NCBI RefSeq assembly: GCF_030499575.1
Contig: NZ_JASTLC010000001.1
Span: 3,372,001 to 3,436,000 of the forward strand
From: Streptomyces sp. DG2A-72
Lineage (GTDB): Bacteria; Actinomycetota; Actinomycetes; Streptomycetales; Streptomycetaceae
Reading direction: 5' to 3'
Length of the DNA: 64,000 nucleotides
The notes beneath the pieces are model-generated. The model was not told where the DNA came from. It made no database searches and saw nothing but the letters and a program-made list of their open reading frames with translations. Position 1 is the first letter of the stretch, and every line of letters starts with the position of its first letter. Position numbers and translations under genes: made by a program. Shown in pieces: positions 36,990 through 39,923 of this stretch.

Positions 36990-37952
36990 TCAGCGCCTCC
37001 CGCTGAGCGCTTCGCGGCCGAGGCCCTCGACCGCCACCGTGGCGGCCTTGGCGAGGAGCGCGTCGTCCCGCTCGGCGTCCTTCTTGCCGCGGGTGGACAG
37101 GACCGTCATGACGATGGGATTGCCGCCGTCGTCCGGCCAGACCACGGCGATGTCGTTGCGTCCGCCGTATCCGGCGGTGCCGCTCTTGTCGGCGACGTCC
37201 CAGGCCTTGGGGACGCCGGCCCTGATGAGGGTGCGGCCGGTCATGTTCGTGGTCATCCACTGCCTGAGGAGCCGGCGTTCGTCGCTCTTGAGGGCGTCGC
37301 CGAGGAGGAAGGCGCGCAGGCTTCCCGCCATCGCGCGGGGTGTGCTCGTGTCGCGGATGTCGCCCGGGGTGCCCTCGCTCATCTCCGTCTCGTAGCGGTC
37401 CATCTCGGTGACGTCGTCGCCGAACCCCTCCAGCACCTTCTCCAGGCCGTCGGGGCCGCCGAGTTCGTCGAGGAGCAGGTTGACGGCCGTGTTGTCGCTG
37501 TACCAGAGGGTCGCGGCGCACAGGCCCCGCAGGGTCATGCCGGTGTCGACGAAGTTCTCGGAGACGGGCGAGTTCTCGACCAGGTCGTCGCGGGAGTACT
37601 TGACCACCTTGTCGATGCCGTCCGTGCCGTACTTCCGGAGGATGGCGCCTGCCGCCAGCGCCTTGAACGTGGAGGCGTACGCGAACCGGTCGTCCGCGCG
37701 GTAGCCGACCGAGCGGCCTGTGCCGGTGTCCAGGGCGTAGACACCGAGCCGTGCGTCGAACTGCCGCTCCAGGGAACGGAATTCGGCAGCGGTGGGTTTC
37801 GTGGCCGCCGCCGGTGACGCGGATCTCGCCGCACCGGCGGATGAGCCGGTCCCGGACGCGGATTCCTGACCGCACGCCGGCAGCACGGCGAGGGCGAGCA
37901 GTCCGGCCGCCGCCCAGGCGGCGCCTCGGCGGATGCGAAGCGGATACGTCAT
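36990..37952 (-). CDS. Class A beta-lactamase, lipoprotein
   Basis: This is a 320-residue serine beta-lactamase, exported and probably lipid-anchored. The leader MTYPLRIRRG is followed by a hydrophobic segment ending LPACGQ (lipobox-like). Mature-region motifs are STFK (Ser70/Lys73), YSDN (SDN loop), DRYETEMSEG (Glu166 present, position 170 is Ser where Asn is usual) and DKSGTAGYG (Lys234-Ser-Gly). The ATG at 37952 follows GGAGG at 7 bases. It is divergent from a LysR regulator and then a BlaB-like gene, as in S. cacaoi blaL/blaA/blaB. Confidence 0.92.
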   Translation of the reverse strand: MTYPLRIRRGAAWAAAGLLALAVLPACGQESASGTGSSAGAARSASPAAATKPTAAEFRSLERQFDARLGVYALDTGTGRSVGYRADDRFAYASTFKALAAGAILRKYGTDGIDKVVKYSRDDLVENSPVSENFVDTGMTLRGLCAATLWYSDNTAVNLLLDELGGPDGLEKVLEGFGDDVTEMDRYETEMSEGTPGDIRDTSTPRAMAGSLRAFLLGDALKSDERRLLRQWMTTNMTGRTLIRAGVPKAWDVADKSGTAGYGGRNDIAVVWPDDGGNPIVMTVLSTRGKKDAERDDALLAKAATVAVEGLGREALSGRR

Positions 37953-38070
37953 GGATGAACCTCCAGGCCGTCGAAGGACAGGTGGGCGGTGCGGGCCCGG
38001 GAAGCCCCGGGCCGCGACCAACTCTCCGGCCCGCGGGGTGCCGAGGTCCAAGACGCGGACGTTCAACTCC

Positions 38071-38088
38071 ATGCTGTTTTGGCATAGT
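38071..38088. promoter_or_regulatory. LysR-type operator and -10 box between bla and the LysR gene
   Basis: ATGC-N7-GCAT (38071-38085) contains a T-N11-A motif typical of LysR operators. CATAGT at 38083-38088, on the plus strand, could be the -10 of the LysR gene; a start of transcription about 7 bases on would fall at the GTG start, suggesting a leaderless message. The site lies in the 143-base gap between divergent genes. Confidence 0.55.
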
Positions 38089-38095
38089 AGAGCGC

Positions 38096-39001
38096 GTGGA
38101 TCTTGTTGCGGCCTGCCGGGCGTTCGTCAGTGTGAGCGAGCACGGCAGCTTCACGGTGGGCGCCGCAGCGGCCCGTACGGCCCAGTCCGTGGTGAGCCGT
38201 CGCGTCGCCGCGCTGGAACAGCGCCTGGGCGAGCGGCTGCTTGACCGTTCCTCGCGGGCGGTGACGCTGACGCCCTTCGGCCGGGACATGCTGCCGACGG
38301 CGAGGCAACTGGTGCTGCTCGCCGACCGGTTCGAGTACGAGGCGGAGGCGGCCCGGCGCCGGCCGCTACGGCTCGCCGTGCCCGCCGTCTGCCCGACGGG
38401 CGCCCTCGCCCGCCTCATCGCCGACGCACACGGGCAGGGCGTCCTCCTCGACCCGTTTCCCGCCGGTCCGGCCGAGCGGGCCGACCTCGTGACCTCCCGG
38501 CAGGTGCGCGCGGCGCTGCTCGCGGTGGCGCCCGCCGAGGCGGCCTGGACGGTGCCGCTGGGACTGGCGGTCGCGGACGAGCCCGGCGGCGGGCCGATCT
38601 ACCTGGACACCCTGCGCCCCGGCCGGGCCGACCGCGACCGGCGGCCCCGGCGGGTGTGGCTGCAACCGGAGGACGATGTGCCGCATGTCCGGGACCGTCT
38701 CACCCGGCTGCGCGACGCCGTCGGGCTGCGCCCGGCCCAGCTGGCCGTCGCACCGGCCGTGGCCGCCGCCGCGGCGGACGTGCTCAGCCACGGCGACGCG
38801 CTGCTGTGCTCGGCCCCGCAGGCCCGCGAACTCCGCCTCCACTGGCGGCCCGTCGGCGAGCTGGGCCCCGGCTTCGCCCGCGGGTTCTCGCTCGCGGTGG
38901 CGGACGAGGCGGACGTCGATGCCGGGCGCTTACGCCAGGCGTGCGCGCCCGGCATCGCCCGGTGCCTCGGCGCGACGGAGAGCGCGGAGGCGGCCGTATG
39001 A
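38096..39001 (+). CDS. LysR-family regulator, BlaA-like
   Basis: This 301-residue regulator begins VDLVAACRAFVSVSEHGSFT. The helix-turn-helix is in the next 45 residues (AAARTAQSVVSRRVAALEQRL, split here as AAARTAQSVV and SRRVAALEQRL), followed by RLLDRSSRAVTLTPFGRDML. The effector domain is weakly conserved. The GTG at 38096 has no clear Shine-Dalgarno sequence and may be leaderless. Its stop overlaps the start of the next gene (ATGA). By context it should activate the divergent bla gene, like BlaA in S. cacaoi. Confidence 0.85.
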   Translation: MDLVAACRAFVSVSEHGSFTVGAAAARTAQSVVSRRVAALEQRLGERLLDRSSRAVTLTPFGRDMLPTARQLVLLADRFEYEAEAARRRPLRLAVPAVCPTGALARLIADAHGQGVLLDPFPAGPAERADLVTSRQVRAALLAVAPAEAAWTVPLGLAVADEPGGGPIYLDTLRPGRADRDRRPRRVWLQPEDDVPHVRDRLTRLRDAVGLRPAQLAVAPAVAAAAADVLSHGDALLCSAPQARELRLHWRPVGELGPGFARGFSLAVADEADVDAGRLRQACAPGIARCLGATESAEAAV

Positions 39002-39923
39002 CCACCGGTACCGAGAGACTGCTCGGGGAACTGCGCCGGGCCCTGCACGACGGCGGGCTGTACGGCTCCTTCCTCGTCCGGGATCTGGAGACGGGCGACG
39101 AGATCGGGATCGACCCCGACACCGAGTTGCCGGTCGCGTCCCTCGTGAAGATCCCGCTGGCCCTGGCGACGCTGGAACGCATCCGGCGCGGGGAACTCGA
39201 CGGCGCCAAGGTGATCGAGGTGGAGCCCGGGCGGATCACCACTCCCGGTCCGACCGGCCTGAGCCGGTTCCGGCACGCCGCCCACATCGCCGTGGAGGAC
39301 CTGCTCTACCTCAGCACCTGCATCAGCGACAGCAACGCCGCCGACGCCCTCTTCGCCCTCACGCCGCCCACCCAAGTCGGGGCGGTCCTGCACGAGTTCG
39401 GGCTGCGCGGCATCGCCGTCCGGCACACCATGGGCGAGCTGATGGACACCCCGGTGGAGCGTTTCGACCCGGCGGACGTCCACCTCGCGCATGCCCTCGC
39501 GATCGACGCCGGCACCCGGGGCGCGGCCACCGGGTGCCGCAACTCGACATCTCGCGTGCGAACACCGGAACGGCACGGGCCTTCGTCGACCTCCTCCAGG
39601 CCCTGTGGACCGAGACCGCAGAGCCCCCGGCGATCCACCCCGACGTCGCGGCCCAGGTACGCGGCTTCCTGGCCAACAACCTCCTGCGCAACCGCCTCGC
39701 CCCGGACTTCGAATCCGACGCCTCCACCTGGTCCTCCAAGACCGGCACGCTGCTCAACCTGCGCCACGAGGTCGGCGTCGTCGAGCACGCCGACGGCCAG
39801 ACCTACGCGATAGCCGTCCTGACCGAGTCACAGGTGGCCGCCGGCCGGCAGCCGGGCGCCGATGCCCTCATGGGCCAGGTCGCCCGGCGCCTGCGCGACG
39901 AACTCCGTTCGAGGTGGGTCTAG
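38998..39923 (+). pseudogene. BlaB-like serine beta-lactamase-fold regulator with a single-base frameshift
   Basis: The first frame runs from ATG at 38998 (overlapping the LysR stop as ATGA) and carries ASLVKIP (Ser48-x-x-Lys51) and CISDSNAADALF (SDN-type). After AIDAGTRG the homology continues in another frame with HRVPQLDISRANTG, AFVDLLQAL and the KTG motif WSSKTGTL, to a stop at 39923. Adding one G to the GGGG run at 39518-39521 would restore a 308-residue protein reading TRGRGHRVPQLD. There is no signal peptide, so it would be cytoplasmic, as for S. cacaoi BlaB, a partner of the LysR activator. The shift may be a real mutation, a sequencing error in the G run, or regulated slippage. Confidence 0.8.

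What the first reader, a model, noticed from the sequence alone, without database searches (positions are those of the whole stretch)
36990..39923. A blaL-blaA-blaB-type beta-lactamase regulation locus
A class A beta-lactamase gene (36990-37952, minus) is divergent from a LysR gene (38096-39001), which overlaps (ATGA) a cytoplasmic protein with SxxK, SDN-like and KTG motifs but no signal peptide. This is the same arrangement as the blaL/blaA/blaB locus described in Streptomyces cacaoi, where a LysR activator and a penicillin-recognising-fold protein together control the beta-lactamase. How the cytoplasmic serine protein takes part in sensing is poorly understood. A class C-like serine hydrolase at 39958 may belong to the same response.
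Basis: partly seen in the sequence, partly recalled or inferred. Interest (0 to 1): 0.75.

Follow-up and report, generated by a model that had tools for sequence, protein, structure and literature searches.

The report
Streptomyces beta-lactamase locus with sensor genes
This is a known kind of bacterial switch that turns on a penicillin-destroying enzyme, here with its sensor gene interrupted; comparison with relatives suggests where the switch binds DNA and that in a few species it may also control a cell-wall enzyme.

Summary
A class A beta-lactamase (36990-37952, -) diverges from a LysR gene (38096-39001, +) that overlaps blaB by ATGA. Against the S. cacaoi locus the BlaB pieces are 72% and 70% identical, LysR 61%, Bla 53%; that S. 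cacaoi BlaB is identical to PDB 2wuq. The blaL-blaA-blaB system is published, so this is a new member of a known kind. Here blaB changes frame at 39510-39528, before KTG; mutation or sequencing error is open.

New from the comparison: (1) the triad is standard (lysR adjacent 79/80, bla divergent 77/80 named loci); (2) BlaBs keep Ser70, Lys73, Ser130 (155/155) and Lys234 (156/156) while the Glu166 column is never acidic (0/156), as expected of an acylation trap; (3) BlaA-type LysRs have a sequence-diverged effector domain (0/40 match LysR_substrate, though the fold is kept) and co-diverge with BlaB (r=0.97); (4) a two-part operator, TCMAAGAC-N16-ATGC-N7-GCAT, lies between bla and lysR; S. cacaoi has a second copy before another class A bla, fitting the published blaL/blaU co-regulation; (5) in three relatives the operator also precedes a MecA_N-type penicillin-binding-protein gene. 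The class C-like neighbour does not belong.

The parts
36990..37952 (-). class A beta-lactamase gene (bla, blaL-like); STFK 37662-37673, SDN 37491-37499, RYETEMS with Glu166 37377-37397, KSG 37179-37187
   Evidence: 53% identical to the bla of the S. cacaoi locus
38047..38054 (+). predicted operator site I, TCCAAGAC
   Evidence: comparative footprint; the only exact composite site in the 10.6-Mb genome
38071..38085 (+). predicted operator site II, ATGC-N7-GCAT (a T-N11-A dyad, the form recalled for LysR-type sites), starting 24 bases after the start of site I
38096..39001 (+). lysR gene (blaA-like activator), GTG start; HTH_1, no sequence match to LysR_substrate but a LysR-type fold in the model
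38998..39001 (+). ATGA overlap of the lysR stop and the blaB start
38998..39528 (+). blaB, N-terminal piece; SLVK 39139-39150 (Ser70/Lys73), SDS 39325-39333 (Ser130); no signal peptide by eye
   Evidence: its open frame runs on to 39813
39510..39528 (+). zone in which the blaB reading frame changes (not mended; relatives with an uninterrupted gene exist)
39546..39923 (+). blaB, C-terminal piece in another frame; KTG 39738-39746
   Evidence: dN/dS 0.17 against L057

Best explanation
This is a member of the blaL-blaA-blaB kind of beta-lactam-inducible beta-lactamase locus. BlaA (LysR) binds the two-part operator between the divergent genes and switches bla on. BlaB is a relative of class A beta-lactamases without an evident export signal; it can be acylated by a beta-lactam (or a peptidoglycan fragment) but should not deacylate efficiently, because it lacks Glu166. 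BlaB would pass its state to BlaA by protein contact, which would explain the sequence-diverged effector domain of BlaA and their close co-divergence. In this genome blaB is interrupted before its KTG motif, so if the sequence is right, induction is predicted to be lost or altered although bla, lysR and operator look intact. Shown here by sequence: membership, arrangement, conserved catalytic residues, operator footprint. Reported in print: control of BlaL by a LysR activator and BlaB; by title only, BlaB as a PBP and blaL/blaU co-regulation. Inferred: binding of BlaA to the operator, acylation as the signal, the cytoplasmic place of BlaB, BlaB-BlaA contact, the loss of induction here.
For: Identity to S. 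cacaoi proteins and 2wuq. Triad conserved in 80 named loci: 79 lysR adjacent, 77 bla divergent, 65 with an in-frame ATGA/GTGA/TTGA overlap. BlaB residues over 156 distinct sequences without the window's: Ser70, Lys73 and Ser130 155/155 each (one row gapped), Lys234 156/156; at the Glu166 column 0 of 156 acidic, against Glu in 120/120 Bla sequences other than the window's. 40/40 BlaA-type LysRs match HTH_1 and 0/40 PF03466 at E<=1; 4/4 ordinary LysRs match PF03466. BlaB-LysR distance correlation 0.97 against 0.79 for BlaB-Bla, n=111. Operator: ATGC-N7-GCAT perfect in 110/154 distinct spacers, 0/154 after shuffling; spacing 24 in 108/112. Further check: a second site elsewhere in the S. cacaoi genome precedes another class A bla.
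Against: No binding, acylation or expression was measured. The position-166 statement rests on an alignment: Glu or Asp is common, not invariant, at column 168 (120 of 156) and at column 171 (139 of 156), and a shifted Omega loop could bring one near. The operator pattern was drawn from the same spacers on which it was counted, and 44 of 154 lack a perfect site II. The genomes are related, so counts are not independent and the distance correlations include shared descent. The BlaA model (mean pLDDT 93) has the fold of ordinary full-length LysR proteins, so a small-molecule effector is not excluded. BlaB's place in the cell was not tested: its highest 17-residue hydropathy in the first 70 residues is 1.48 against 1.96 for Bla. 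In the window blaB is interrupted, so the mechanism may not run here at all.
Confidence: 0.82

Rival explanations
1. The blaB frame change is a sequencing or assembly error and the strain has a normal, inducible triad.
For: Both pieces are under purifying selection against L057 (dN/dS 0.09 and 0.17), with little extra decay after the break; L057, about 94-96% identical in DNA, has one open blaB.
Against: The assembly looks clean in one test: none of 25 near full-length aldehyde dehydrogenase matches is split (31 matches; 6 partial ones not resolved). In another, among 40 P450 matches, one gene may be split (8581065 and 8581394). blaB is disturbed elsewhere too: in G143 lysR and blaB change frame, in G357 blaB has a TGA and a frame change, in G284 it is one shorter frame; some of these may be errors as well. 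A very recent real mutation would give the same dN/dS.
Confidence: 0.45
2. Programmed translational frameshifting makes a full BlaB from the interrupted gene.
For: Both pieces are conserved.
Against: The break is not shared: 82 of the 85 BlaB-bearing genus genomes have a match of at least 398 bits, and the frame changes seen lie at different residues, about 175 in the window, about 99 in G143 and about 272 in G357. I saw no slippery site by eye and ran no search for one.
Confidence: 0.03
3. BlaB is not a beta-lactam sensor but senses peptidoglycan precursors or fragments inside the cell, an AmpR-like logic; the beta-lactam acts only indirectly.
For: BlaB has no evident signal peptide, and beta-lactams should be scarce in the cytoplasm; the acylation machinery would suit a D-Ala-D-Ala ligand as well; BlaA keeps the LysR fold.
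Against: A 2003 title states that BlaB is a penicillin-binding protein. Invariant catalytic residues fit either ligand.
Confidence: 0.3
4. An unrelated class A bla beside an ordinary LysR and a chance paralogue.
For: None found.
Against: Conserved order, overlap, co-divergence and operator.
Confidence: 0.01

Closest known systems
Streptomyces cacaoi blaL-blaA-blaB (BlaB structure 2wuq)
   Same: Gene order, divergence, homologous proteins (53-72% identity), operator with the same 24-base spacing.
   Different: blaB here changes frame before KTG; the own genome has one exact composite operator, whereas S. cacaoi has a further site before another class A bla.
AmpR-ampC (Gram-negatives; recalled)
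   Same: LysR activator divergent from the beta-lactamase gene.
   Different: Here the LysR is paired with a serine protein in its own operon, and its effector domain is not recognised by PF03466.
BlaR1/BlaI and MecR1/MecI of staphylococci (recalled)
   Same: A serine-acyl sensor without turnover controls a beta-lactamase and, in three relatives by operator evidence only, a MecA_N-type PBP.
   Different: LysR activator and a sensor without evident export signal, instead of a repressor and a membrane sensor-protease; no homology claimed.

Membership tests
blaL-blaA-blaB regulation locus | class A bla divergent from a LysR gene | tested here: met
blaL-blaA-blaB regulation locus | LysR homologous to S. 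cacaoi BlaA | tested here: met
   61% over 298 aa
blaL-blaA-blaB regulation locus | blaB directly after lysR, homologous to S. cacaoi BlaB | tested here: met
   ATGA overlap; 72% and 70% in two pieces
blaL-blaA-blaB regulation locus | an uninterrupted blaB | tested here: not met
   frame change at 39510-39528; so a member by descent, possibly not in function
blaL-blaA-blaB regulation locus | SxxK, SD[NGS], KTG present | tested here: met
   all present, KTG in the other frame
blaL-blaA-blaB regulation locus | bla expression dependent on blaA and blaB | not testable with these tools
   needs expression data
penicillin-binding (acylated) sensor | acylation by beta-lactam, slow deacylation | not testable with these tools
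   catalytic residues conserved, Glu166 column not acidic
LysR-type regulator | LysR helix-turn-helix and full-length fold | tested here: met
   HTH_1 40/40; model matches full-length LysR structures, e.g. TsaR TM 0.65
LysR-type regulator | PF03466 effector domain by sequence | tested here: not met
   0/40 at E<=1; 4/4 ordinary LysRs positive; so diverged in sequence, not in fold
BlaA-BlaB regulon: class C-like hydrolase 39958-41109 | operator before the gene or conserved adjacency | tested here: not met

The most novel reading that the evidence does not exclude
BlaA-BlaB is an acyl-trap switch inside the cell that in some streptomycetes controls not only one or two beta-lactamases but also a MecA_N-type penicillin-binding protein: hydrolysis and target bypass under one sensor, reached with parts unrelated to the staphylococcal BlaR1/MecR1 systems. 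BlaB would act on a LysR protein whose effector domain, though of the usual fold, has diverged to take a protein signal.
Probability: 0.42. Interest if true: 0.68.

Novelty: new member of a known kind. Interest (0 to 1): 0.48.

Why it matters
The system was described in one species decades ago. The comparison gives it a sequence-defined candidate operator, a set of residues to mutate, and a predicted regulon that can be tested directly, including a MecA_N-type PBP gene. It turns 'how does an internal serine protein sense beta-lactams' into specific experiments. The window's own locus would serve as a natural test of a triad without an intact blaB, if the frame change is real.

Tried and rejected
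Rejected: the class C-like hydrolase as part of the response; programmed frameshifting; a second BlaB copy in the own genome (one search lists only the two pieces at E<=1e-40); further exact composite sites in the own genome (one only). Led nowhere: the operator pattern with 3 mismatches in 56 genomes was swamped by hits about as frequent as those of the reversed pattern, and its list was cut; the 2003 paper is not held; PMC6273383 and PMC3660660 do not contain 'blaB' and the passages shown of PMC9146315 concern other proteins. Operator-like sites at L266 and L269 have no bla or PBP match beside them. Of the 71 rows I fetched four away from the BlaB matches; one, G244, proved to be the locus itself. 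The other rows away from BlaB were not followed; the reversed pattern gave 24 hits in 392 genomes by my count. In one search one site (L248) was not looked at, and I did not check for each genome that the site is at the bla locus.

The G143 and G284 statement was corrected.
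Full report
WHAT IS THERE. The window lies in a 10.58-Mb genome (G000:C1:3372001-3436000). I take it for Streptomyces: G035, listed as 'same genus', has a contig of the same length as that of S. mashuensis L023. A class A beta-lactamase gene (36990-37952, -) is divergent from a lysR gene (38096-39001, +), which overlaps blaB (from 38998, +) by ATGA. Pfam and NCBIfam agree with these names. blaB is in two frames: the N piece (38998-39528) holds SLVK and SDS, the C piece (39546-39923) holds KTG; the profile matches meet at 39510-39528. 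I described this and did not mend it.

IDENTITY. The N piece matches PDB 2wuq, 'beta-lactamase regulatory protein BlaB', at E 3.9e-77. BlaB of the S. cacaoi NBRC 12748 locus (L065) is identical to 2wuq over 311 residues. Against that locus the window has Bla 53%, LysR 61%, BlaB 72% (N) and 70% (C) identity. The nearest relative found, Streptomyces sp. GESEQ-4 (L057), has 93%, 97%, 97% and 97% and one open blaB.

LITERATURE. Control of S. [quoted passage not shown] 2003, whose title says BlaB is a penicillin-binding protein. PMC10235803 (passages) cites Magdalena et al. [quoted passage not shown] I saw neither original (for the first; the second was not asked for). Searches; by titles and starts of abstracts, none of the papers listed describes the operator or a PBP gene under BlaA/BlaB. 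The lists were cut, and the library holds only open-licence papers, so older work may well exist.

DISTRIBUTION. A BlaB profile (A2) finds 84 matches of at least 398 bits in 82 genomes and partial matches in 3 more (G000, G143, G284): 85 of 392 genus genomes by my count of the listing. Matches of about 200 bits and less form a separate group of other class A-like proteins. Of these 80, lysR is adjacent in 79 and bla divergent in 77; of the three without bla, two (L060, L076) are cut by a contig end and one (L080, S. albus subsp. chlorinus) lacks it in nearly 6 kb. L099 counts by a weak LysR match only (64 bits), and in several loci lysR or bla is itself split (L025, L028, L055, L064). The stop-start overlap is ATGA, GTGA or TTGA in the BlaB frame in 65.

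ACTIVE SITE. 158 distinct BlaB rows, 156 of them not the window's, were aligned with 121 distinct Bla rows. In BlaB: Ser70, Lys73, Ser130 and Asp131 155/155 each (one row gapped), Lys234 156/156. Asn132 is relaxed (N 65, G 61, S 26, E 2, Q 1). At the Glu166 column BlaB has M, L, T, V, I, Q or A and never an acidic residue (0/156); the 120 Bla rows other than the window's all have Glu. Against a clean reading: Glu or Asp is found in 120 of 156 two columns later and in 139 of 156 five columns later. The pattern is what one expects of a protein that is acylated but does not turn over; no chemistry was tested.

THE LYSR PARTNER. 40/40 BlaA-type LysRs match HTH_1 and 0/40 match LysR_substrate (PF03466) at E<=1, while 4/4 ordinary LysRs from fetched loci do. 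The domain is diverged in sequence, not lost: a profile matches BenM over positions 5-252 of 290, and the AlphaFold model of the window's LysR (mean pLDDT 93.2, pTM 0.76) matches full-length LysR structures (494 PDB chains at E<=0.001; TsaR TM 0.65). Pairwise distances correlate at 0.97 for BlaB-LysR, 0.84 for LysR-Bla and 0.79 for BlaB-Bla (n=111 distinct loci; largest of 300 permutations 0.105). This fits a protein-protein signal without proving it; the permutations do not remove shared descent.

OPERATOR. In 154 distinct spacers (of 166) the best match to ATGC-N7-GCAT is perfect in 110, and in 0 of 154 dinucleotide shuffles; TCMAAGAC is perfect in 53 and in 0 shuffles; in 108 of 112 spacers with both at 7/8 or better the starts are 24 bases apart. 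The motif was drawn from these spacers. The others include 28 of a second clade with its own consensus. In the window: 38047-38054 and 38071-38085. Over 392 genus genomes with one mismatch allowed there are 71 hits in 63 genomes, against 24 for the reversed pattern by my count; 18 are exact, and all 18 lie in BlaB-bearing genomes (one search read). In 29 of 30 genomes of other families or odd loci at least one site is found, exactly one in 25; the reversed pattern gives 2.

CHECK IN S. CACAOI. A relaxed pattern with up to one mismatch gives four hits in that genome: the locus itself (0 mismatches), one before a second class A bla (L234, 1675-2616; site II perfect), and two others, one beside an ordinary LysR gene, that look like chance; the reversed pattern gives one. 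The second bla is what the blaL/blaU title leads one to expect; I did not check that it is blaU.

REGULON BEYOND ONE BLA. Other sites before a class A bla away from lysR-blaB: S. hainanensis (L191), S. albus subsp. chlorinus, where lysR-blaB and bla are about 4.6 Mb apart (L253, L267), Streptantibioticus silvisoli (L265, one mismatch), and G071, which has no BlaB-level match (L192, one mismatch). I name G144 as S. hainanensis and G369 as S. harbinensis because their places coincide with those of the genomes behind L081 and L086. In S. harbinensis an exact site lies about 30 bases before a gene for a MecA_N plus transpeptidase protein (L190, 5072-6967; STFK, SCN, KTG). In S. hainanensis (L081) the order is bla, site, a gene 72% identical to it, site, lysR, blaB, the PBP gene taking the place divergent from lysR. 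Strain SBT349 shows the same order across two contigs. Only the S. harbinensis protein was scanned against Pfam. The site scores are 16-18 of 18; 300 shuffled 400-base stretches reach 14 at most. Against: close relatives of this PBP occur in 7 of 392 genus genomes (9 genes) and only 2 of the 9 have the site; the second copies in S. hainanensis and S. harbinensis and the one of G354, all BlaB-bearing, lack it, as does that of G420. So the PBP link rests on three streptomycetes and on sequence alone.

THE BREAK. Against L057 dN/dS is 0.19 (Bla), 0.11 (LysR), 0.09 (BlaB N) and 0.17 (BlaB C); against L063 and L074 the BlaB values reach 0.45 (N) and 0.38 (C). So the break is recent or an error. None of 25 near full-length aldehyde dehydrogenase matches in the assembly is split, but one P450 gene may be. 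Two other genus genomes keep a disturbed blaB without a lysR or bla match within about 5 kb (L183, L184), and in G143 both lysR and blaB change frame. I leave the two readings about even.

VERDICT. The added value is the candidate operator, the residue pattern, the diverged LysR partner and a testable wider regulon.

Noticed in passing
L081 about 3003-4805 (-), L190 5072-6967 (+), L201 1-1479 with L076 14-322: PBP genes of one MecA_N-type family preceded by the same operator as bla in S. hainanensis, S. harbinensis and strain SBT349.
   Followed up: partly
L057 about 5778-6030: In Streptomyces sp. GESEQ-4 a stretch of about 125 bases at the lysR/blaB junction is present twice in tandem, so blaB apparently no longer overlaps lysR.
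   Followed up: partly
L080 and L253: S. albus subsp. chlorinus keeps lysR-blaB without bla beside it; an exact operator with a class A bla is elsewhere in the genome.
   Followed up: partly
L183, L184, L270: Disturbed blaB: with a TGA and a frame change (G357), shorter and alone (G284), and with frame changes in lysR and blaB (G143).
   Followed up: partly
L136, L156-L182: A second BlaB clade with a different spacer consensus, TCCAAGAGtGAACTTTGA followed by CAT..CtTaTTGATATGA (28 spacers).
   Followed up: partly
L192: Class A bla with a one-mismatch operator in G071, a genome without a BlaB-level match.
   Followed up: no
L266 4242: One-mismatch operator in Streptantibioticus silvisoli with no bla or PBP match beside it.
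   Followed up: no
L071 2912-4889: Two bla matches in tandem in Nocardiopsis alborubida beside lysR-blaB.
   Followed up: no
window 36903-36917: A perfect ATGC-N7-GCAT beyond the 3' end of bla; about 15 matches with up to one mismatch are expected in the window by chance.
   Followed up: no
window 39958-41109: Class C-like serine hydrolase, convergent with blaB; among the 80 named loci matched only in L057 and in the two contigs of strain F001.
   Followed up: yes
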